A stretch of DNA of 32,497 bases. It comes from Gammaproteobacteria bacterium. GTDB lineage: Bacteria > Pseudomonadota > Gammaproteobacteria > Pseudomonadales > Azotimanducaceae. The position numbers and the translations under genes were made by a program. The stretch is taken from NCBI GenBank assembly GCA_018656865.1, contig JABHYO010000097.1, positions 1 to 32,497 of the forward strand, read 5' to 3'. Below are positions 2,614 to 24,008 of this stretch, piece after piece. Under the pieces are notes generated by a model. It made no database searches and had not been told where the DNA came from. It was given only the letters and a program-made list of their open reading frames with translations. Every line of letters begins with the position of its first letter. The stretch's first letter is position 1.

Positions 2614-3132
2614 CTAGGTCTCTTCGATCTCTATATCAACACCCAAATTGTGGGAGATCTCGTCCAGCCGCTCTGAGAGCGCAACGAGATCCTCCCCACC
2701 ACCGCAGGCCACCACCGCCCTGCCATGAAACATTGGATCACCTGTCATGGCAGCTCTGGAGATGTCTGTTTCCAGATCGAGGACATTGAGTTGCCGGGCT
2801 ACCAACTCACCCGACACTTCACGGACAATTCCTGGGCGATCAAGCCCCAACATTGTTACGACAATGGTTTTTTGGGCAGGTTGGCCGTCCGAATCTCCTT
2901 TTTCGACAACGACTGTAAGATCACTGAGTTTGTCCAGGTCCGACTTCAGTAACTCCAGCTGACCTGCATCGCCTTCAACATGGATGATCCCGGCAAACTT
3001 CCCGCCCAACCGACTCATTCTGGAACCAAGCCAGTTACACGCCTGATCATTGACACATCGGGAAATCTGTTCAACCACACCCGGGCGGTCTGGGCCAATG
3101 ATGGTAAAAACGAGAGATTGCAGCACGATCAT
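2614..3132 (-). CDS. GcvR-like tandem ACT-domain regulator
   Basis: A 172-aa cytoplasmic protein made of two ACT domains: residues about 4-75 (LVFTIIGPDRPGVVEQISRC) and about 85-165 (TIVVTMLGLDRPGIVREVSG). The 'GxDRPGIV' motif at the first loop of each domain is the amino-acid-binding signature of this superfamily. The two-ACT layout and length match glycine cleavage system transcriptional repressor (GcvR)-type proteins, which act by protein-protein contact rather than by binding DNA. ATG at 3132 is used because the first ACT strand begins right after it; a GTG two codons downstream would be better spaced from an AGGA. No gcv gene is visible nearby, so the regulated target cannot be read from context. 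It converges with the porin gene, leaving only 12 nt. Confidence 0.78.
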   Translation of the reverse strand: MIVLQSLVFTIIGPDRPGVVEQISRCVNDQACNWLGSRMSRLGGKFAGIIHVEGDAGQLELLKSDLDKLSDLTVVVEKGDSDGQPAQKTIVVTMLGLDRPGIVREVSGELVARQLNVLDLETDISRAAMTGDPMFHGRAVVACGGGEDLVALSERLDEISHNLGVDIEIEET

Positions 3133-3155
3133 TCCTGTTGTTGATTGGACAGGAA
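3132..3155. promoter_or_regulatory. Operator-like dyad between the gcvR-like and kinase genes
   Basis: Perfect 7-nt inverted arms TTCCTGT (3132-3138) and ACAGGAA (3149-3155) are separated by 10 nt in the 64-nt divergent spacer. One arm overlaps the ribosome-binding site and start of the ACT gene. The geometry suits a dimeric repressor site. No clear sigma70 promoter was recognised on either strand here. Confidence 0.3.
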
Positions 3156-3196
3156 CAAGGTTAAAGTATCTGTCGAGGATCGAACAGAGAGAGCAT

Positions 3197-3748
3197 ATGC
3201 ATCTTATATTTCTCCACGGTGTTCCCGGAGTAGGCAAAAGGACAATTGCAAAGCAGCTCGCCCAGGAGTTGGGCTTTGCATTTCTGGATTTTCAGAACCT
3301 GACCCAACTGCTTGGCCCTGTGTTCGGATACAGTTCCGAGACATTTGGTGAGCTGAGAAATGCGTCCTACAAACAGATCCTTGAATCTGCGATGCAATTG
3401 CCCGATGACGGGTTAATAGCCTCCTTCACCTACGATCAGCACATCGATCTGGGTCACTACGCCACCTTTGTGGAATCAGCCAGGGCCAGCGAAGGCATCG
3501 GTCTTTTTCTTGGATTGACCTGCGACGACGAGGAGCTAAAGGGTCGGGTAGATGCCCCGGACAGGCACTCCGCCAAGATTTCAGATCTGCAGCTCATGGA
3601 AGACGATTTCGGTAACTCTCAGCTTGATATGCCGGATCTGCCAGGACCGTCCATTACCATCAACACCACCGGCGAGACTCCGGAACACACCGTACACAAC
3701 ATCATGGCGATGCTGCCGGACGGGATGAAGAGCAATATTAGCTTTTGA
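3197..3748 (+). CDS. Small P-loop nucleotide kinase-like protein
   Basis: A 183-aa protein starting with a nucleotide-binding P-loop: MHLIFLHGVPGVGKRTIAKQ. The glycine-rich loop GVPGVGK (residues 8-14) is followed by Arg-Thr instead of the usual Ser/Thr directly after Lys, a variant seen in some AAA_33/shikimate-kinase-like P-loop phosphotransferases. A following 'GFAFLDFQNLT' resembles the substrate-binding segment of small-molecule kinases. The ATG at 3197 is chosen because it places the P-loop at the N-terminus and has a GAGAGAG purine stretch upstream. The substrate cannot be read from sequence. The gene is divergent from the ACT-domain gene and stands alone before tonB. Confidence 0.6.
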   Translation: MHLIFLHGVPGVGKRTIAKQLAQELGFAFLDFQNLTQLLGPVFGYSSETFGELRNASYKQILESAMQLPDDGLIASFTYDQHIDLGHYATFVESARASEGIGLFLGLTCDDEELKGRVDAPDRHSAKISDLQLMEDDFGNSQLDMPDLPGPSITINTTGETPEHTVHNIMAMLPDGMKSNISF

Positions 3749-3825
3749 CCAGATTCCTTTAGTTTCACTGCTGCTCAAAATGGGTGTAGGCTTTAGCTGT
3801 TAGTCACTTCGGGCGGGCATGGGCG

Positions 3826-4491
3826 ATGGATACATTGAATATTCATCCCTCCATAAAAGTTTTTTCTGTTGCCTCGGCAGCATTGGTTGCCACGTGCCTT
3901 TGTTTTTATCTCATGTTTCTGCTTATCGCCAATGAGATGACCGCCTCAATCGAGGTCGAAACCAAACCCTCCATAAACCCTGATCTGCGTGAACACGAGC
4001 CCGAGAAACCAGTAGCGACACGCCAGAGACCTCAGAAAGTGATGCCAATAGAGCCTCCCCCCGACCCAAATGCTATCCCAACTAATCGGACTTCCTGGGT
4101 TGAAATGGAAGCGGAAAAGCCAACTTTTGGCAGCATTGCGGATCTGCTTGGGCCCAGTGACATTCAGCTACAACTTGAAGCACCTCATTCGGACCTTATG
4201 CCAATGTACGTGGTACAACCGGTGTACCCTCTGAGCGCAGCCATGCGCGAGATCGAGGGCTTTGTCATCGTTGAATTTTCTGTCAGGGAAAATGGTACCG
4301 TCGTTAACCCCATGGTGGTCCAGTCGGAACCGAAAGTGGTGTTCGACGAGGCTGCACTTCATGCCGTTACACGTTTCAAGTTCAAACCAAGGGAAGTTGG
4401 CGGAGAAACTGTAAGCGTAGAGAAGGTACAACTGAAGTTCTCTTTCAATCTCGACTCGCTCTATGAGATCCCGGAGGAATATCAGAGATGA
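3826..4491 (+). CDS. TonB-family energy transducer (TonB2-like)
   Basis: A 221-aa periplasm-spanning protein. A short cytoplasmic head is followed by one hydrophobic anchor (about residues 12-35), then a Pro/Glu-rich linker (EPEKPVATRQRP, MPIEPPPDP), then a TonB C-terminal domain at about residues 125-215. The domain shows the conserved pattern 'QPVYPLSAAMREIEGFVIVEFSV', 'GTV', 'FDEAALHAVTRFKFKP'. Such proteins couple the inner-membrane proton motive force, via ExbB-ExbD, to outer-membrane receptors. The stop codon overlaps the next gene's start (ATGA), so the pair is probably co-translated. tonB followed by a TPR gene is the tail end of the tonB2 operon of marine gammaproteobacteria, but no exbB/exbD lies next to it here. 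Confidence 0.85.
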   Translation: MDTLNIHPSIKVFSVASAALVATCLCFYLMFLLIANEMTASIEVETKPSINPDLREHEPEKPVATRQRPQKVMPIEPPPDPNAIPTNRTSWVEMEAEKPTFGSIADLLGPSDIQLQLEAPHSDLMPMYVVQPVYPLSAAMREIEGFVIVEFSVRENGTVVNPMVVQSEPKVVFDEAALHAVTRFKFKPREVGGETVSVEKVQLKFSFNLDSLYEIPEEYQR

Positions 4492-5066
4492 AATATCTAT
4501 TGTTTGTGTTTGGCATGATCATAGCCGCTGAAGTTCCGGCGCAGAATATAACCACTTTCGGCTCGGACAACTCGACCCGTTGCTACCAGGAAAGCAATTC
4601 ACCGTTTTCAGATTACGGTCTTCGATACTGTACGGATGCGATTCGAAACGATGACCTGGTACTGAGAGATCTGGCTGCAACTCACACCAACCGAGGCATC
4701 ATCTATGCTGCCAACGGCAGGCTGGACGAAGCCATGGAAGATCACAATCAGGCCTTACTGCTCTCACCCAAGATGGGAAAAATCTATGTCAATCGAGGCA
4801 ATGTCTTTCACCAAACCCATGAATACGAACAGGCACTGGCCGACTACGACAAGGCCATTGAACTCGACAATGTGAAACTGGATATCGTTTATTACAACAA
4901 GTCACTGACACTCATCCGGATGAAACGCTGGGACGATGCCCGCACAGCCCTTGAGACAGCCCTTGAGGTCAATCCAGAATCATCCAGGGTAAAGCGCAAA
5001 CTGGCCCAATTCGATCTGCCGATAGAAGAACCCGCGCCTGCTGTAGTTACGCCGGATGACGATTAG
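4488..5066 (+). CDS. Periplasmic TPR-repeat protein (TonB2-associated type)
   Basis: A 192-aa exported protein. Residues 1-19 form a signal peptide (MKYLLFVFGMIIAAEVPAQ). At least three tetratricopeptide repeats occupy about residues 65-175, with the typical W/N-x2-G-x2-Y-A/x and 'ALxxxPxxxxxxxNRGN' spacing (THTNRGIIYAANGRLDEAME; IYVNRGNVFHQTHEYEQALA; VYYNKSLTLIRMKRWDDART). Two cysteines precede the repeats and could form a disulfide. It overlaps the upstream tonB by 4 nt. TPR proteins in this position assist TonB2-type transport complexes in vibrios; that role is inferred from the neighbour, not from a specific motif. It converges with phoH 9 nt downstream. Confidence 0.75.
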   Translation: MKYLLFVFGMIIAAEVPAQNITTFGSDNSTRCYQESNSPFSDYGLRYCTDAIRNDDLVLRDLAATHTNRGIIYAANGRLDEAMEDHNQALLLSPKMGKIYVNRGNVFHQTHEYEQALADYDKAIELDNVKLDIVYYNKSLTLIRMKRWDDARTALETALEVNPESSRVKRKLAQFDLPIEEPAPAVVTPDDD

Positions 5067-17270: not shown

Positions 17271-17741
17271 ATGGAAGACCGAACAAAGCCCTTGATCCTT
17301 GTCGTTGACGATCAGGCAACCATCATCAGGATCATGTCCAGAATTCTGCGCCCGACCTACGAAGTCTGTGTCGCAACCAACGGACGAAAAGCCCTGGATG
17401 TGGCCAGGGAACAGCTGCCTGATCTTATCCTGCTCGACAATATGATGCCTGAAATGACCGGCATAGAAACCTGCATGGCCCTGAAAGATATGCCGGAAAC
17501 CGCCGATATCCCAGTTATTTTCGTGACTTCCATGGACGACAGGCACAACGAACAGATGGGCTTCAAGGCAGGCGCTGTTGACTACATGATCAAGCCGCCG
17601 TCTCAGGAACTGGTGCACGCAAGGATCAGTGTTCACCTGAAGAACCAGCGGCAACGTATCTTTCTAGGTCAGCTTGCAGACGGGGAGATCACCGACGTCG
17701 ATCTTATCCAGCAGGGTGCTCGGCACCTGCTCAACATCTAG
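17271..17741 (+). CDS. Single-domain CheY-like response regulator
   Basis: A 156-aa receiver protein. The acidic pair is in [10 protein letters not shown] (D13-D14), the phospho-acceptor Asp in [13 protein letters not shown], the switch Thr in IFVTSMDD and the Lys in YMIKPPS. After the receiver (about 8-125) comes only a short helical tail ([20 protein letters not shown]), so there is no DNA-binding or enzymatic output domain. It may work through protein contact or pass phosphate on. Receivers of this kind are often found as the first domain of PatA or HD-GYP/GGDEF proteins. No histidine kinase is adjacent. The ATG at 17271 starts [14 protein letters not shown]; the frame extends upstream but would include the presumed promoter. 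Its stop interlocks with that of convergent rnhB. Confidence 0.85.
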
Positions 17742-18343
17742 GTAGCGATGGGGTCGGACCCCAGTTTTCGTGACCCCAAGCTTTGGCGGCAGGGCGCAAA
17801 TGACATTCGATGAATTGGCGATGGTCCGTATTGACGTAACGCTTCAAGGTGAGCGGCTGTTGGATAACCCTTGTGTTGCGCAAGGCCGTATTCAGGATAT
17901 CGCTCATCGAGCTCGACCATCTCAGCGTCTCGGGCCACCTTGGCGATGATGGATGCCGCTTTTATGGCGTCGTATTTTGCATCTCCCTTGATCAACCACT
18001 CAGCCTGTACCGGAAGATCGGGTATCCGATTACCATCAACCAGGACAAAGTCCGGCAGAACATCTAGTCCGGCGACGGCCCGCTGCATTGCCAGCATGCT
18101 GGCCTGAAGGATGTTGATTTCATCTATTTCAGCCACCTCGGCCCGGGCAATGCAAAAACAAACCGCCTTCTCGCGAATTTCAATATCGAGCTGATCACGG
18201 CGTTTCGCCGACAGACTTTTCGAATCACGTAAGCCCTTAATCGCTACGAACGGATTGAGTATCACGGCGGCTGCCATCACCGCACCTGCAAGCGGCCCAC
18301 GACCCACTTCGTCAACACCTGCGACATATTCACGCCGATACAT
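17738..18343 (-). CDS. rnhB: Ribonuclease HII
   Basis: A 201-aa nuclease that cuts RNA in RNA-DNA hybrids and removes misincorporated ribonucleotides. Catalytic acids are visible: D11-E12 in [10 protein letters not shown]103 in LVDGN and D121 in IKGDAK, followed by the family stretch '[14 protein letters not shown]'. It lies right after lpxB, as in the conserved lpxB-rnhB-dnaE arrangement, but dnaE does not follow. The last 13 codons ([13 protein letters not shown]) derive from a palindromic TGGGGTC element rather than from family-conserved sequence; the conserved core ends at '[11 protein letters not shown]'. Total length is still normal, so activity should be intact. Confidence 0.95.
17749..17778. 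repeat. TGGGGTC palindromic (REP-like) element, doubling as a terminator
   Basis: Perfect 7-nt arms TGGGGTC (17749-17755) and GACCCCA (17757-17763) surround one G. A further copy of the half-site, TGACCCCA (17771-17778), follows after GTTTTCG. On the plus strand the strong stem followed by GTTTTC is positioned 8 nt past the response-regulator stop and can act as its terminator. On the minus strand it is translated as the end of rnhB. Palindromes of this form recur as dispersed repeats in some proteobacteria; here only one full copy is visible, with a half-site at about 6005-6014. Confidence 0.6.
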
Positions 18344-19522
18344 CTAGTGAACTTCTACGTCTACACCGCAGTGCCTAAGCACAACCGCCGCAGCTTCTCG
18401 ACCCGGTTCAGCGCCTTTTCTTAGCATCCGATGAATCCGATCAAATTCACTGACCAGTTTTTCCACATTTTCTGCTTCAAGAAGTATTTTGACAGCCTGG
18501 GCCAACTGCTCTGGATTGGCATCGTCTTGAATCAATTCTGGTACCAGTGATTGACCGGCAAGAATATTCGGCAACGCAAACCAGTTTGTTTTGATCAATC
18601 TTGAAACGATAGCGTAGGTCATCGGCCCCAGGCGATAGGACATCACCATTGGTTTTTTAAGTAACATGGCCTCCAGGGTAGCCGTACCTGAATTGACCAG
18701 GACGACATCGGCTGCTGTCATCACCTGTCTCGATTCACCTTCAATCAGTTGTACCCTTGAGCCAAGCTCCTGATAGGTCGCCAGCATCTCTCTGAGCTGC
18801 TCAAGACGCCTGGCATTTGACGCGGGAATAACGAAACGGTCGACCCTGCCTCCCAGAAGCCTGGCAGTGTCGAGAAAGTCACGACCTGTCATCCTAACTT
18901 CGCTTTTGCGGCTACCGGGTAGAATCGCAACAACCTTCTCGTTGGCTTCGATACCCAGTTCACTTCTAGCGGCTACTTTGGCGCTCTCGCCCTCATCCAC
19001 ATCTATCTCATCAGCCTTGGGGTGGCCGACAAAGGCAACCGGAATTCCGTTTTTTTCATAGATCTCTGTCTCGAAGGGATAGAGGGTCATCATCAAATCA
19101 ACATTGCGCTTAATCTTGTTGATCCGACCCTGCCGCCACGCCCAGACAGTTGGAGAGACATATTGAATAGTTTTAATTCCTCGACGTTTGAGCATCCCCG
19201 CCAGCAGAAGATTGAAAAAATTGAAGTCTATCCCGACGAAGCAATCTGCACGGCTCGCGAGAATACGATCACGCACCATGAACAGCAGCTTCAACAGTTC
19301 AGGTAGGCGGAGGAGCGGGTCGACAAACCCATTGACAGAAAGCCGTTCAATATCAGCATCAGAGGTAAATCCCTCAGCTATCATGGCAGGTCCGCCAATG
19401 CCGACAAACCCGGTCCCGGGAGCGAGGATTCCTATCTGACGGACCAGAGCGGCACCGAGGTTATCACCAGAAGCCTCTCCCGCCACCATGGCTATTGTCA
19501 TGGCGCGGTCGGCAGTTGGCAT
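18344..19522 (-). CDS. lpxB: Lipid-A-disaccharide synthase
   Basis: A 392-aa glycosyltransferase (GT19) that condenses UDP-2,3-diacylglucosamine with lipid X to form the lipid A disaccharide at the inner membrane. Hallmarks are 'AMVAGEASGDNLGAALVRQI' at the N-terminus, 'FVGIGGPAMIAEGF', 'CFVGIDFNFFNLLLAGML', 'QYVSPTVWAWRQGRI' and 'ILPGSRKSEV'. Length matches the family. The ATG at 19522 lies 3 nt after the fabZ stop; an internal ATG at 19501 is the alternative. rnhB starts immediately after the lpxB stop. The usual upstream neighbour lpxA is absent. Confidence 0.96.
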   Translation of the reverse strand: MPTADRAMTIAMVAGEASGDNLGAALVRQIGILAPGTGFVGIGGPAMIAEGFTSDADIERLSVNGFVDPLLRLPELLKLLFMVRDRILASRADCFVGIDFNFFNLLLAGMLKRRGIKTIQYVSPTVWAWRQGRINKIKRNVDLMMTLYPFETEIYEKNGIPVAFVGHPKADEIDVDEGESAKVAARSELGIEANEKVVAILPGSRKSEVRMTGRDFLDTARLLGGRVDRFVIPASNARRLEQLREMLATYQELGSRVQLIEGESRQVMTAADVVLVNSGTATLEAMLLKKPMVMSYRLGPMTYAIVSRLIKTNWFALPNILAGQSLVPELIQDDANPEQLAQAVKILLEAENVEKLVSEFDRIHRMLRKGAEPGREAAAVVLRHCGVDVEVH

Positions 19523-19525
19523 TAG

Positions 19526-19966
19526 TTACTCGCTGACCTTCTGTTCTGCGCAGGTGAGCAACGATGAGCAAACCAGGTTGTCTTCGACATAAGCCTTGCC
19601 TGATGCTTTCATCCAATGCTTGCGCATGTTGAGGATTTCTACTTCGAGTCTGATCTGATCACCCGGGATAACCGAGCGCTTGAACTTGGTCTTGTCCGTG
19701 CCAGCGAGATAATAGATGAAACCATCGTCCAGAGTTCGATCACGACTGCGAAAAGCCAGAATACCTGATGCCTGAGCCAATGCTTCGACAATTAAAACGC
19801 CGGGAAATACCGGCGTCTCAGGAAAGTGACCCGTAAACATCGGCTCATTAATCGTGACATTTTTGATACAGACAATTCTCTTGTCAGCTTCAAACTCTAT
19901 TACCCTGTCCACCAACAGAAATGGATAACGATGTGGTAGGTAATTTTTTATTTCTGTAACTTCCAT
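19526..19966 (-). CDS. fabZ: 3-hydroxyacyl-ACP dehydratase FabZ
   Basis: A 146-aa hot-dog-fold dehydratase of fatty-acid elongation. The catalytic His47 is in TGHFPETPVFPGV and Glu61 in IVEALAQASG; 'LPHRYPFLLVDRV' is the N-terminal signature. It competes with the LpxA reaction for 3-hydroxyacyl-ACP, which is why it normally sits between lpxD and lpxA. Here it follows lpxD by 12 nt and leads straight into lpxB. Confidence 0.96.
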   Translation of the reverse strand: MEVTEIKNYLPHRYPFLLVDRVIEFEADKRIVCIKNVTINEPMFTGHFPETPVFPGVLIVEALAQASGILAFRSRDRTLDDGFIYYLAGTDKTKFKRSVIPGDQIRLEVEILNMRKHWMKASGKAYVEDNLVCSSLLTCAEQKVSE

Positions 19967-19978
19967 ACTGCGTCCAGG

Positions 19979-20989
19979 CTAACGATCCGATTCCAGGCGT
20001 CTTAGACGTTTCAACATGTCATCCAGTTTACGGAACCCGACGACACTACGCTTCCAATCAGTACCTCGCATTAATCCGGTACCCGATGAATAACGCCCTT
20101 TTTCCAGGATTGACTGACTCACCAGCGTCATGGCGGTGATCTCAACCTGGTCTGTTATTTCTATATTATCAACGATTCCAACCGCACCACCAATGAGACA
20201 GTAGCTTCCGATCTTTGTACTACCGGCAATCGCCGTACACCCCGATATCACCGTATGATGATCAATCCGTGTTCCGTGACCGATTTGCACCTGATTGTCG
20301 AGCTTACAGCCATCACCAATCGTCGTATCGTTAAGAGCACCTCGGTCGACGGTCGTGCCTGCGCCAATCTCAACATGCTTACCAATCTGAACGCCATACA
20401 CTTGCGGAATTTTAATGTAGTCACCGCTGTCGCTGTCGAACTCAAAGCCGAATCCGTCTGCACCAATCACGACATTGCTGTGAACAAGGCAACCTTCACC
20501 GATAGAGCATCCATGATAAACAACCACGTGTGGCATCAACCTGGTGCCTGCTCCAATGGCTACACCTTCGCCAACAAAGCCACCGGCACCAATTTCTGCG
20601 CCGTCACCTATCACGGCTCCAGGTTCGATAACTGCCTGCGGCCCTATCACGACACTCTTGCCAAGTTGGGCCTGATCGCTCACCACAGCTGACACATCAA
20701 CGTAGGGTGTGGCTACCGGGGTCGGATCAAACATCGCTGCAATCTGAGCCCACGCCAAGCGCGGATTCCCGGAAATCAGGACAGGTCTGGTGGTAAGAGA
20801 CGCATCTTCCTTTCGCAGGACGATTGCCGCGGCTTGTGTTGACTCAACGAGGCTGCGATATCTGCCACTAAAGAGAAATGAGATTTGATTGGGACCGGCA
20901 TCCTGCAGTCCAGCGATGCCTTGAATATCTACGTCGACATCGCCCCTGAATTCAAGTCGAAATTTTTCGGCTATCTCACTGAGTTTCAA
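19979..20989 (-). CDS. lpxD: UDP-3-O-(3-hydroxyacyl)glucosamine N-acyltransferase
   Basis: A 336-aa hexapeptide-repeat acyltransferase, third enzyme of lipid A synthesis. Residues 1-100 form the LpxD-specific uridine-binding domain. Residues about 105-300 are left-handed beta-helix repeats ([IV]G-x4 periodicity: AVIGDGAEIGAGGFVGEGVA, VEIGAGTTVDRGAL). H238 in VQIGHGTRID is the catalytic base (E. coli His239). 'ADGFGFEFD' is the acyl/UDP pocket. The C-terminal helices (SVVGFRKLDDMLKRLRRLE) are typical of LpxD, not LpxA, so this gene does not replace the missing lpxA. It follows skp after 6 nt. Confidence 0.97.
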   Translation of the reverse strand: MKLSEIAEKFRLEFRGDVDVDIQGIAGLQDAGPNQISFLFSGRYRSLVESTQAAAIVLRKEDASLTTRPVLISGNPRLAWAQIAAMFDPTPVATPYVDVSAVVSDQAQLGKSVVIGPQAVIEPGAVIGDGAEIGAGGFVGEGVAIGAGTRLMPHVVVYHGCSIGEGCLVHSNVVIGADGFGFEFDSDSGDYIKIPQVYGVQIGKHVEIGAGTTVDRGALNDTTIGDGCKLDNQVQIGHGTRIDHHTVISGCTAIAGSTKIGSYCLIGGAVGIVDNIEITDQVEITAMTLVSQSILEKGRYSSGTGLMRGTDWKRSVVGFRKLDDMLKRLRRLESDR

Positions 20990-20995
20990 CCGACA

Positions 20996-21514
20996 CTACT
21001 TTTCAAGCGCATTCATTTTTTCGGTAATCTTGGCGGTCACATCGTACAATTCATGCCGATAGTGCACGCTCTGCCTGGGTAGAATCAGGTCGTATTTTTC
21101 ACTCAGCACCAAAGCTTCGACAGCTTCCTGGTAACGGGAGGTCAGTGACTGAATCAACCGGTCAGTACTCTCCAGTTTGATCCGCTGAACATTCTCGACG
21201 AGCTGTGACATCTGCCCCCGCTGAACGGAAATATCCTGAAGGAGTTTCTGAAACTCCTGATCACTCATTAGTTCAGTATCTTTCTTAAGTTTCTCAAGCA
21301 GAACCGTGACTTCTTTTTGCATCTCCTTCAGCTGTTCTTCCTGTTCAATGAAGGCACCATTGATCTGATCCATGCCTTTTTGGCCTAATTCGGATTGAAG
21401 AATAGCTCTCTGAGCGTCGGCGACACCAATTTTCGCCTCAGCAAAGGCAGATGATGACGACACGGCCATGATGATACTGGCCAGAATAGCCAAAATGCCT
21501 TTTTTGTAGTGCAC
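20996..21514 (-). CDS. skp: Periplasmic chaperone Skp (OmpH)
   Basis: A 172-aa exported chaperone that holds unfolded outer-membrane proteins on their way to BamA. It has a signal peptide (about 1-25, ending AFAEA) and 'KIGVADAQRAILQSELGQKG', the conserved start of the mature trimerisation strand. Long charged helices follow for the tentacles (about 55-120), and a closing strand (YDLILPRQSVHY). The start is GTG: AAGGAG lies 6 nt upstream, which fixes it. It follows bamA by 145 nt and precedes lpxD. Confidence 0.93.
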   Translation of the reverse strand: MHYKKGILAILASIIMAVSSSSAFAEAKIGVADAQRAILQSELGQKGMDQINGAFIEQEEQLKEMQKEVTVLLEKLKKDTELMSDQEFQKLLQDISVQRGQMSQLVENVQRIKLESTDRLIQSLTSRYQEAVEALVLSEKYDLILPRQSVHYRHELYDVTAKITEKMNALEK

Positions 21515-21659: not shown

Positions 21660-24008
21660 CTAGAATGTTTTACCCAGCTCAAACTGGAAGGCTTCTGATT
21701 CGTCGCCATCCTTTTCGTTGATGGGGAACGAAAGTGAAAAACTGATCGGCGCAAAACCGGTAATCCAGGTCACCGCGAGACCCGCACTATAGCGAAGCTC
21801 ACCTTCATCCAGGTCCAGGCAGACAACACTGACGGCCGCGCAATTGGTATTGAAGACATTTCCCGCATCGACAAAGAACACCGACCGCATCTGGCTCTGC
21901 TCCTCGATAAACGGTAGTGGGAACAGAATTTCGGCACTGAACTCAATCAGTACGTTTCCGCCTATCGGATCCGGTTCTCTGAACTGGTCCTGCGGCGATG
22001 GTGTCGACCTGGGCCCAAGCGTATTGCTCTCATACCCTCTTACTGACCCCATACCTCCTGAAAAGAAATGTTTGTAGAAAGGGAAAGTTTCGGTACTACC
22101 ATAGGCCTCACCATAACCGAGGTCAGTCCTAAGCCGCATTACTAGTGGCCCAAAGAGCGGATAGAATATCTGGCCATTGTAGTTGATACGGAAAAATTCA
22201 AGTTCACTGCCAGGGATCGTCATTTCAAACGACAATGACTGAGAACGACCGGCTGTCGGCATAAGCCCGCGATTGAGAGCAGACATGCTGTAGGTCGCCG
22301 TGAGCGACAGCAGGTCGAACTGATCACCCTCCTTATCGATAAATGCTGAAATTTCCTGAGCGGGTATTACTCCTTCCTGGATCCTTGTGCTTTCATAGCC
22401 AAAGCTGAAACCGATACGTGATACTTCCGAGATGGGATATCCAAAGTTCACGCTGGCGCCATAGGAATCAGTAGAAAAGCTCGCAATATTGAACTCTTCA
22501 AAGTCACTTTTGCGGAAAAATACCGAATAACCCCGACTCACTCCATCGACGGTGTAGTACGGATCGAAGAACGAGAAGCTAAGTGCTTCCTGGAAGTCGC
22601 TGCGATTGACACCGATATTGATACTGTTGCCCGTACCGAAAACATTTGACTCCTGATAGGAAAGCCCGAGGATCAGACCAGTGTCCTCTGCGAATCCGAC
22701 GGTCGCGGATATAGATCCTGACGGCTGTTCTTCGACCGTATAGTTCACATCAATCTGGTCTTCTGTACCCGTCACAGTCGGTGTTTCGACATTAACTTCC
22801 TTGAAAAAACCAAGACGCTGCAGTCTGATTTTCGACCCTTCGATCATGGCAGTCGATGCCCAACCCCCTTCCAGCTGACGCATCTCACGTCTCAGAACTT
22901 CATCCTGAGTCACGGTATTACCCTGGAAGCTAACCCGACGAACATAGGCGCGCTGGCCTGCATCGAGAAAGTACTTAATTGTTACCGTTTCACCGCTTTC
23001 GTCGATGACCGGTTCACCTGTAGCACTGGCAAAGGTATAGCCTGAATTACCGAGAGCATTTTCGATTCGCTCTTCCGAAGCCGTCATGTACTCACGGGAG
23101 AAAATCTGCCCCTCCCGCGTAAGCAGCAGCGCCCGTATGTTCTCCTCCGGGATATCCCGCAGCTCACCAGCCACTTCTACACCGGACACCGTAAACTGAT
23201 CACCTTCAGTAATATTAAAAGTGATGTAGACATCTTCCATGTTCGGTGCAATGGAAACTTGTGTGGAATCCACGCGAAAGTTCAGATAGCCGCGATCAAG
23301 ATAGTAGGATTCAATGGCTTCAATATCTCCCTGGAGTTTTTCTCGGGAATATTGATCGTCTTTGGTATAGAAAGAAAAAAGACTCGGCAGCTTGAGCTCG
23401 AGCATTTCTGTCAGGGTTTCGTCGTCAAAAACCTTGTTTCCGATGACATTAATATGCCTTATACCTGATACATTTCCCTCAAAGACATCGACATTTATCG
23501 CAACCCGGTTTCTCGGAAGATCCTCAACCGTGGTTTCAATCCGGGCATCGTAACGTCCCTGAGAAACATACTGGCTCTCCAGATCAGACGCGATGTGTTC
23601 CAGGGTTACTTTCTTGAAAATCTGCCCTTCAGACAAGCCTGAGCCCTCGAGTCCTTCAAGCAGTGCTTCGGTTTTGATTGCCTTATTGCCTTCGAACTCA
23701 ATGGAATCAATGGTTGGACGCTCCTTGACCACAACCACCAGCACATTGCCGTCACGACCGACCTGCACATCGTCAAAATTTGACGTCTTGAAAAGCGATT
23801 TCGCTATCGTTCTGATTTCAACAACGCCAATGTCATCACCAACATTGTAGGGAATGGCACCAAATACTGTGCCAGCTGAAATTCGCTGGAGGCCTTCAAC
23901 ACGGATGTCGGAGATCACGAAAGCGAAGGCAGAGCCCCCATATGCTATAGCCAGAAGCAATACGGCGGGCCGCAGGAAATCTTTGATTGTTGTTATGAGA
24001 TATACCAC
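21660..24008 (-). CDS. bamA: Outer-membrane protein assembly factor BamA
   Basis: A 782-aa Omp85 protein, core of the BAM complex that inserts beta-barrels. A signal peptide (to about residue 29, GSAFAF) is followed by five POTRA domains (about 30-420; first 'VISDIRVEGLQRISAGTVF'). A 16-strand barrel follows, carrying the L6 motif VRGY in GGMGSVRGYESNTLGPR. The chain ends in aromatic Phe (FELGKTF). E. coli BamA is 810 aa. The start is GTG at 24008 with GAG about 9-11 nt upstream. It lies 24 nt after rseP and upstream of skp, the canonical order. Confidence 0.96.
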   Translation of the reverse strand: MVYLITTIKDFLRPAVLLLAIAYGGSAFAFVISDIRVEGLQRISAGTVFGAIPYNVGDDIGVVEIRTIAKSLFKTSNFDDVQVGRDGNVLVVVVKERPTIDSIEFEGNKAIKTEALLEGLEGSGLSEGQIFKKVTLEHIASDLESQYVSQGRYDARIETTVEDLPRNRVAINVDVFEGNVSGIRHINVIGNKVFDDETLTEMLELKLPSLFSFYTKDDQYSREKLQGDIEAIESYYLDRGYLNFRVDSTQVSIAPNMEDVYITFNITEGDQFTVSGVEVAGELRDIPEENIRALLLTREGQIFSREYMTASEERIENALGNSGYTFASATGEPVIDESGETVTIKYFLDAGQRAYVRRVSFQGNTVTQDEVLRREMRQLEGGWASTAMIEGSKIRLQRLGFFKEVNVETPTVTGTEDQIDVNYTVEEQPSGSISATVGFAEDTGLILGLSYQESNVFGTGNSINIGVNRSDFQEALSFSFFDPYYTVDGVSRGYSVFFRKSDFEEFNIASFSTDSYGASVNFGYPISEVSRIGFSFGYESTRIQEGVIPAQEISAFIDKEGDQFDLLSLTATYSMSALNRGLMPTAGRSQSLSFEMTIPGSELEFFRINYNGQIFYPLFGPLVMRLRTDLGYGEAYGSTETFPFYKHFFSGGMGSVRGYESNTLGPRSTPSPQDQFREPDPIGGNVLIEFSAEILFPLPFIEEQSQMRSVFFVDAGNVFNTNCAAVSVVCLDLDEGELRYSAGLAVTWITGFAPISFSLSFPINEKDGDESEAFQFELGKTF

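What the first reader, a model, noticed from the sequence alone, without database searches (positions are those of the whole stretch)
19520..19530. lpxA is missing from between fabZ and lpxB, with a seamless 3-nt junction
In gammaproteobacteria lpxD-fabZ-lpxA-lpxB-rnhB is one of the most conserved gene strings. Here the fabZ TAA and the lpxB ATG are separated by three bases, and both proteins are full length. LpxA performs the first committed step of lipid A synthesis, yet lpxD and lpxB are intact. Either lpxA has moved, another acyltransferase replaces it, or the first step of lipid A is altered in this lineage. The neat junction argues against a simple broken assembly.
Basis: partly seen in the sequence, partly recalled or inferred. 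Interest (0 to 1): 0.75.

Follow-up and report, generated by a model that had tools for sequence, protein, structure and literature searches.

The report
Foreign LpxA replaced the native gene
In this group of uncultured bacteria the gene for the first step of endotoxin (lipid A) synthesis is gone from its usual place, and its job appears to have been taken over by a gene acquired from a very distant bacterial group related to Lentisphaerales, sitting elsewhere in the genome.

Summary
In detail: fabZ and lpxB abut (3 nt) and lpxA is absent from the operon. But the genome has lpxA: a full-length LpxA on another contig (C176:5029-5844), divergent from fabB-fabA, the site used in the genus. It is not the native gene moved. 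In an 83-row LpxA tree it joins LpxAs of a Lentisphaerales MAG and its class (100/100), inside a group of that phylum, while operon-encoded LpxAs of the same order, three sister genera included, form a separate clade; forcing them together is rejected (p-AU 1e-38). LpxC, LpxD, FabZ, LpxB and RnhB are native. In the two Lentisphaerales-class loci read, lpxA follows lpxC and fabZ. In 46 genomes of this group fabZ and lpxB have no intact lpxA between them; in 42 of these the foreign-type LpxA was found elsewhere. One (G055) keeps a truncated native-like remnant in the old slot. On the operon backbone the foreign-type genomes are not one clade (p-AU 1.5e-4), so native lpxA was most simply lost more than once. 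Best explanation: xenologous displacement. Activity, acyl-chain preference and number of transfers are untested. Nine paper searches found no description of it.

The parts
19523..19525 (-). three-base junction between the fabZ stop codon and the lpxB start codon; the ancestral slot of lpxA
19526..19966 (-). fabZ, native, full length
   Evidence: TIGR01750 192.3 bits; backbone tree
18344..19522 (-). lpxB, native, full length
   Evidence: TIGR00215 335.3 bits; LpxB tree groups it with the sister genera
19979..20989 (-). lpxD, native
   Evidence: TIGR01853 325.5 bits; backbone tree
17738..18343 (-). rnhB, native
   Evidence: NF000596 288.1 bits; backbone tree
20996..21514 (-). skp-like chaperone gene, upstream neighbour
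   Evidence: NF008047 42.8 bits, under its cut-off of 237
21660..24008 (-). bamA, upstream neighbour
   Evidence: TIGR03303 824.6 bits

Best explanation
Xenologous displacement. An ancestor in this Pseudomonadales-like group acquired an lpxA from a donor related to Lentisphaerales; in the window's lineage it sits divergently upstream of fabA, with a promoter-like sequence of its own. With the foreign enzyme making UDP-3-O-acyl-GlcNAc, the native lpxA became dispensable and was deleted from lpxD-fabZ-lpxA-lpxB-rnhB, leaving fabZ and lpxB abutting. Shown: the junction, the single LpxA over cut-off elsewhere in the genome, its position in the LpxA tree, the native origin of LpxC, LpxD, FabZ, LpxB and RnhB, repeated absence of native lpxA, and a truncated LpxA-like remnant in the old slot of one relative. 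Inferred: direction of transfer, enzymatic equivalence, and that acquisition preceded loss.
For: LpxA at G000:C176:5029-5844, TIGR01852 297 bits against a cut-off of 231. Tree: 19 relocated-type LpxAs (100/99) plus 6 rows of the Lentisphaerales MAG's class and one Chromatiales MAG row form a 100/100 clade inside a group (99/93) of rows from that phylum; 15 canonical LpxAs of the order form a 95/92 clade that includes three genera of the same family. Holding the 19 and the 15 together is rejected, p-AU 1e-38. Best identities to the window genome's LpxA in that class: 57, 55, 54, 53, 52, 49% (118 genomes); none above 42% in 273 other Gammaproteobacteria or above 46% in 298 other genomes of the phylum (some genomes are in both sets), among the rows listed best first. 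In the 2 such loci read, lpxA follows lpxC and a double fabZ frame. LpxC of the relocated-type genomes is gammaproteobacterial (100/100 split). Truncated LpxA-like frame between fabZ and lpxB in G055. H125, H122, H144, G143, Q73, D74, K76, N198, R204 equivalents kept in 19 of 19.
Against: Activity is not tested. Direction rests on nesting and on the lpxC-fabZ-lpxA setting, not on a dated event; the tree was rooted at its midpoint. One acquisition followed by losses is not told apart from later transfers within the order (p-AU 0.118 and 0.22). In the remnant about 66-75 N-terminal residues align; it scores higher with the canonical profile (70.9 bits) than with the foreign one (52.5), but its best curated families are close together (LpxA 69.5 bits, an LpxD model 66.7), and its best BLAST hits are canonical LpxAs of other gammaproteobacteria with a relocated-type row not far behind. 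Five of 17 genus genomes showed no LpxA over the cut-off, four of them 57-71% complete but one (G001) rated 95% complete with 9% contamination.
Confidence: 0.87

Rival explanations
1. Plain relocation: the native lpxA moved next to fabA and then diverged fast.
For: It occupies one fixed site in the genus: fabA divergent in 11 of 12 genus genomes with an LpxA over cut-off (the twelfth contig starts at lpxA). Rearrangements of lpxA or lpxB occur elsewhere in the order (G033, G037).
Against: Tree position and AU test. His at position 137 occurs only in the relocated-type rows, the six class rows and the Chromatiales row among those compared; Asn at 126 is fixed in the same rows and otherwise seen in 2 of 18 other rows of that phylum. 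49-57% identity to six rows of the Lentisphaerales MAG's class against 31-40% to canonical LpxAs of the order.
Confidence: 0.04
2. Hidden paralogy: an ancient second LpxA was inherited vertically and lost in the other lineages.
For: Some genomes carry a second LpxA over the cut-off (G024, G033, G038).
Against: None of 273 other gammaproteobacterial genomes has this type above 42% identity among the listed rows; the second copies of G024 and G038 form a separate branch; paralogy would need very many losses and would not explain the nesting.
Confidence: 0.06
3. Reverse transfer: the gammaproteobacterial lineage gave its LpxA to the Lentisphaerales group.
For: The two groups are sisters in the tree.
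Against: The joint clade is nested inside a wider group from the Lentisphaerales MAG's phylum (99/93), and in the two loci read there the gene lies in an lpxC-fabZ-lpxA cluster.
Confidence: 0.04
4. Assembly or binning artefact.
For: Fragmented assembly (221 contigs).
Against: Same junction in 12 of 12 readable genus genomes and 4 others of the family and no intact lpxA in 30 further genomes; both loci on one contig in G013; fabA and mostly fabB of the same type lie beside lpxA in 41 of 57 loci.
Confidence: 0.01

Closest known systems
Canonical gammaproteobacterial bamA-skp-lpxD-fabZ-lpxA-lpxB-rnhB order
   Same: All members but lpxA, same order, native by backbone tree
   Different: lpxA is absent and fabZ abuts lpxB
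LpxA of a Lentisphaerales MAG and its class, in lpxC-fabZ/fabZ-lpxA clusters
   Same: Closest relatives found of the fabA-linked LpxA (49-57% identity); share Asn at position 126 and His at 137 of E. coli numbering
   Different: Here the gene stands alone upstream of fabA in a gammaproteobacterium
E. coli LpxA (PDB 1LXA and others)
   Same: Same family, catalytic His125 and substrate residues kept
   Different: Asp126, described as the dyad partner of His125 (PMC6286764, passages), is Asn in 19 of 19; Arg205 is Ala or Val in 19 of 19
UDP-GlcNAc3N-selective LpxA with GnnA/GnnB (recalled; two papers seen as listings)
   Same: Also an LpxA variant
   Different: No GnnB-like partner seen: the one strong DegT-family hit in the window's genome lies in an O-antigen-like cluster (gene names there recalled)

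Membership tests
LpxA (TIGR01852) | Full-length match above the curated cut-off | tested here: met
   297.4-297.7 bits, cut-off 231.05; below the cut-off the profile also rings in genomes without LpxA (14 of 14 controls ring, 4 over the cut-off)
LpxA (TIGR01852) | Catalytic His125 with H122, H144, oxyanion G143 | tested here: met
   19 of 19 rows of this type
LpxA (TIGR01852) | UDP-GlcNAc-pocket residues Q73, D74, K76, N198, R204 | tested here: met
   19 of 19
LpxA (TIGR01852) | Asp126 beside His125 (a feature of E. coli LpxA, not a curated criterion of the family) | tested here: not met
   Asn in 19 of 19 and in 6 of 6 rows of the Lentisphaerales MAG's class; the 18 other rows of that phylum have 11 Asp, 4 Glu, 2 Asn, 1 Gly. 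I do not treat it as defining
LpxA (TIGR01852) | Acyl transfer to the 3-OH of UDP-GlcNAc | not testable with these tools
   no assay
Xenologous gene displacement | Resident gene of a different lineage from the ancestral one | tested here: met
Xenologous gene displacement | Rest of the operon and pathway inherited vertically | tested here: met
   LpxB tree (its root was weak), LpxD-FabZ-LpxB-RnhB tree, LpxC tree; later pathway enzymes were not tested
Xenologous gene displacement | Native gene lost, ideally with a remnant | tested here: met
   46 genomes without an intact lpxA in the slot; remnant in G055
Simple relocation of native lpxA | Relocated gene groups with native orthologues | tested here: not met
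   p-AU 1e-38
UDP-GlcNAc3N pathway (GnnA/GnnB) | GnnB-type aminotransferase beside a GnnA-type dehydrogenase | tested here: inconclusive
   five PF01041 hits, one strong, and that one in an O-antigen-like cluster (names recalled); no GnnB reference was compared, and the assembly is about 94% complete

The most novel reading that the evidence does not exclude
LpxA is a swappable part in this group. A Lentisphaerales-type LpxA displaced the native enzyme more than once, possibly spreading between members, while in the three sister genera that kept the operon copy the native LpxA has a rebuilt sugar pocket (D74A, K76A or V, H160P or L, Arg at 163). The ancestor may have changed the substrate or acyl specificity of the first lipid A step, and two lineages solved the consequence differently: by remodelling or by importing a foreign enzyme.
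Probability: 0.2. Interest if true: 0.75.

Novelty: new variant of a known kind. Interest (0 to 1): 0.52.

Why it matters
LpxA catalyses the first lipid A step, is described as essential and as an antibiotic target (abstract of PMC6408518 as listed), and its operon is among the most conserved in Gammaproteobacteria (general knowledge). Replacement of this enzyme from another phylum, with a remnant of the old gene still in place in one relative and remodelled native copies in sister genera, gives a natural experiment on how an essential membrane-lipid enzyme can be exchanged and whether lipid A acyl chains change when it is.

Tried and rejected
UDP-GlcNAc3N hypothesis: searched DegT aminotransferases in the window's genome and in 8 relatives. 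The window's one strong hit is in an O-antigen-like cluster. Of the three genomes with a remodelled native LpxA, G021 and G022 have no strong hit, whereas G020 has (neighbourhood not examined). No general case for this pathway, but no GnnB reference was compared.

Acyl-chain ruler: position 173 is Gly in 18 of 19 relocated-type rows and mixed in canonical rows of the order (Ala, Met, Gly, Thr); position 191 is Pro in nearly all of both. This suggests but does not settle chain length.

Donor in Proteobacteria: searched 273 other Gammaproteobacteria and 298 other genomes of the phylum, sets that overlap in part; nothing above 46% among the listed rows. The first tree (77 rows) had few rows of the Lentisphaerales MAG's phylum and placed the group loosely near alphaproteobacterial LpxAs; adding such rows changed that. 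From to I left out the E. coli row, L012, L185, L186 and several class and phylum rows, and used 20 of the available relocated-type rows (19 plus the Chromatiales row L132).

Single versus repeated acquisition: holding all fabA-linked LpxAs, or all others, as one clade was not rejected (p-AU 0.118, 0.22), so I claim no number of transfers. The LpxA tree used 38 of 42 available fabA-linked rows (L081, L094, L101, L115 left out as near-duplicates), all 15 others and 7 outgroup rows; L077 (contig edge) was not used. In the backbone tree (quick method) 41 relocated-type rows were used; L058, L059, L060, L063, L066 and L067 were left out (near-duplicates, genomes without a detected LpxA, and L067, the same genome as L331), as was L052.

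Remnants in the other long fabZ-lpxB gaps (G054, G058, G059, G060, G043, G049, G044, G046, G018): no native-LpxA profile match at a meaningful score; the G054 gap holds a GrpB-family frame. Shorter gaps were searched by tblastn only.

Literature: nine searches (three of them returned no paper) listed no paper on an LpxA displacement in this group. Passages were seen in PMC3087551, PMC6286764 and PMC7072397; all other papers were seen as search listings only.

Full report
What is in the window. On the minus strand lie bamA, a skp-like gene, lpxD, fabZ, lpxB and rnhB. FabZ ends and LpxB starts three bases apart, both full length. The only LpxA-profile match listed in the window is LpxD.

Where lpxA is. 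The same genome (G000, 3.71 Mb, 221 contigs, 93.9% complete, 1.9% contamination) encodes one LpxA over the family cut-off, at C176:5029-5844 (297 bits). It stands divergent from fabA (4244-4801, minus) and fabB (3021-4235, minus), followed by a HAD-type hydrolase frame (6051 to the contig end), with a response regulator and a histidine kinase beyond fabB (fabB named by recall from its sequence and position). In the genus, 12 of 17 genomes have an LpxA over the cut-off; 11 of these 12 show fabA divergent from lpxA and the twelfth contig begins at lpxA. The five without are G001 (95% complete, 9% contamination), G003, G009, G010 and G012 (57-71% complete).

The junction in relatives. LpxB was found in 32 of 38 genomes and 30 loci were read. 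In 12 of them lpxA lies between fabZ and lpxB, in 16 the two genes stand side by side without it, and two (L041, L052) are other rearrangements. The 16 comprise 12 in the genus (the window included) and 4 in other genera of the family. Three genera of the same family (g5, g6, g7) keep the canonical order; one (g4) has neither gene. A second set of 31 genomes, reached through LpxAs of the relocated type, was read at the same place: none has an intact lpxA there. One of these is the same assembly as G023 of the first set, so 46 genomes in all; in 42 of them the relocated-type LpxA was seen elsewhere in the genome, and in four of the first set (G001, G003, G009, G012) no LpxA over the cut-off was found. 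In G013 both loci are on one 2.46-Mb contig, about 1.08 Mb apart.

It is a different LpxA. Canonical LpxAs of the order are 31-40% identical to the fabA-linked LpxA, whereas FabZ and LpxB of the same loci are 43-58% identical to the window's (a divergent LpxB of G033, 37%, apart). No other gammaproteobacterial genome of 273 exceeds 42%, and none of 298 other genomes of the phylum exceeds 46%, among the listed rows; the two sets overlap in part. A pattern-based scan of named genomes kept the best 80 of 406 relatives: 57 loci in gammaproteobacterial or proteobacterial MAGs at 57-82%, a Lentisphaerales MAG at 58%, a Chromatiales MAG at 55%, then 46% and below. Record titles among the 57 include K189A clade, OM182 clade and Pseudomonadales. 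In the class of the Lentisphaerales MAG (118 genomes, unnamed apart from that MAG) the best rows are 57, 55, 54, 53, 52 and 49% identical. Below I call these six rows Lentisphaeria, a name of mine taken from that one title; its phylum group also contains a MAG titled Verrucomicrobia.

Tree. With 83 rows the 19 relocated-type LpxAs form one clade (100/99), joined with the six Lentisphaeria rows and the Chromatiales row at 100/100, inside a group of rows from that phylum (99/93). The 15 canonical LpxAs of the order, the three sister genera included, form their own clade (95/92) among gammaproteobacterial LpxAs. Forcing the 19 together with the 15 costs 171.5 log-likelihood units, p-AU 1e-38. In the two Lentisphaeria loci that I read, lpxA follows lpxC and a double fabZ frame, comparable to the clusters with lpxC and fabZ described in PMC3087551 (passages).

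The rest of the early pathway is native. LpxB (weak root), a joint LpxD-FabZ-LpxB-RnhB alignment and LpxC place these genomes with their relatives in the order; LpxC separates from the Lentisphaeria LpxCs at 100/100. Later enzymes were not tested.

Repeated loss and a remnant. On the joint tree (quick method) the group splits into clade I (29 relocated-type genomes, the window included) and clade II (12 relocated-type genomes interleaved with the three genera that keep the operon copy). One clade for all 41 is rejected, p-AU 1.5e-4, so loss of native lpxA more than once is the simplest reading. Of the 15 lpxA loci without fabA, 12 have the same flanking families, named on one locus as PhyH and Gfo/Idh-aldo/keto reductase (in one of the 12 a small extra frame intervenes); L108, L117 and L122 differ or end early. 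In G055 the fabZ-lpxB interval holds a 136-codon open frame (L318:2952-3359) whose first part matches LpxA residues 2-67 and whose tail weakly matches 159-189 (3.6 bits), without the catalytic middle; it scores 70.9 bits with a profile of canonical LpxAs and 52.5 with the foreign type, and among curated families 69.5 bits for LpxA and 66.7 for an LpxD model. From this and its place I read it as native lpxA decaying after the foreign gene took over. Whether the foreign gene came once, coexisting with the native one and followed by several losses, or later moved within the group, is not settled.

How it works. Catalytic and substrate residues of LpxA are kept in 19 of 19 rows (H125, H122, H144, G143, Q73, D74, K76, N198, R204 in E. 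coli numbering). Two states mark the foreign type: Asn for Asp126 and His for Asn137, in 19 of 19, 6 of 6 Lentisphaeria and the Chromatiales row; Asn126 also occurs in 2 of 18 other rows of that phylum. The most likely function is therefore the ordinary first step, UDP-GlcNAc 3-O-acylation. In the intergenic region a -10-like box facing fabA is present in 14 of 14 loci examined; the 8-mer around it occurs in 24 of 31 intergenic regions against at most 6 in shuffles. A promoter-like TTGACA-N16-TGTAAT stands upstream of lpxA (L033:4914-4941), and its pattern occurs in 7 of the 14, without a chance control. So lpxA may have its own promoter next to the gene of another enzyme that uses 3-hydroxyacyl-ACP; regulation is not tested.

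Sister genera. The operon LpxAs of g5, g6 and g7 have Ala at D74, Ala or Val at K76, Pro or Leu at H160 and Arg at C163, while keeping H125. Pro at Q73, also seen there, occurs in 4 of 12 other canonical rows of the order too, and K76 varies in 5 of 10 alphaproteobacterial rows. They score over the family cut-off, and in each of those genomes no other LpxA over it was listed. Their substrate is an open question.

Verdict. A real and well-supported case of xenologous displacement of a core-pathway gene, rather than a missing gene or a simple relocation. The kind of event is known; this instance was not found in nine paper searches.

Noticed in passing
L015, L021, L028 (genera g5, g7, g6; canonical operon LpxA): The native LpxA of the three sister genera has lost the D74, K76 and H160 equivalents and has Arg in place of Cys163, yet scores over the LpxA cut-off and is the only LpxA over it listed in those genomes.
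   Followed up: partly
G019 (same family) and G032 (same order): No LpxB match; G019 has no LpxA-profile match at all and G032 only weak ones, so even the usual cross-match of LpxD is missing, in genomes rated 92% and 100% complete; possible loss of lipid A. LpxD itself was not searched.
   Followed up: no
L185:4372-5142 (G038) and L186:1860-2630 (G024): A second LpxA of 257 aa on a separate branch, over the cut-off; none of the window's or C176's genes was found beside it.
   Followed up: partly
L357 (G017), L358 (G021), L359 (G049), L349 (G022), L351 (G023): A second LpxC subfamily (100/100), beside the usual LpxC in three genomes and as the only LpxC found in G022 and G023, of 20 genomes searched.
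   Followed up: partly
L041 and L188 (G037); L052, L187 and L190 (G033): Other families of the order also have lpxA or lpxB outside the operon: G037 has fabZ and lpxB side by side with a partial LpxA at a contig end; G033 has two LpxAs and a divergent lpxB beside one of them.
   Followed up: partly
L317, fabZ-lpxB interval (G054): The old lpxA slot holds a GrpB-family open frame.
   Followed up: partly
L132:487-1287 (Chromatiales MAG): An LpxA of the Lentisphaerales-like type (55% identity) in another gammaproteobacterial MAG, possibly an independent acquisition.
   Followed up: partly
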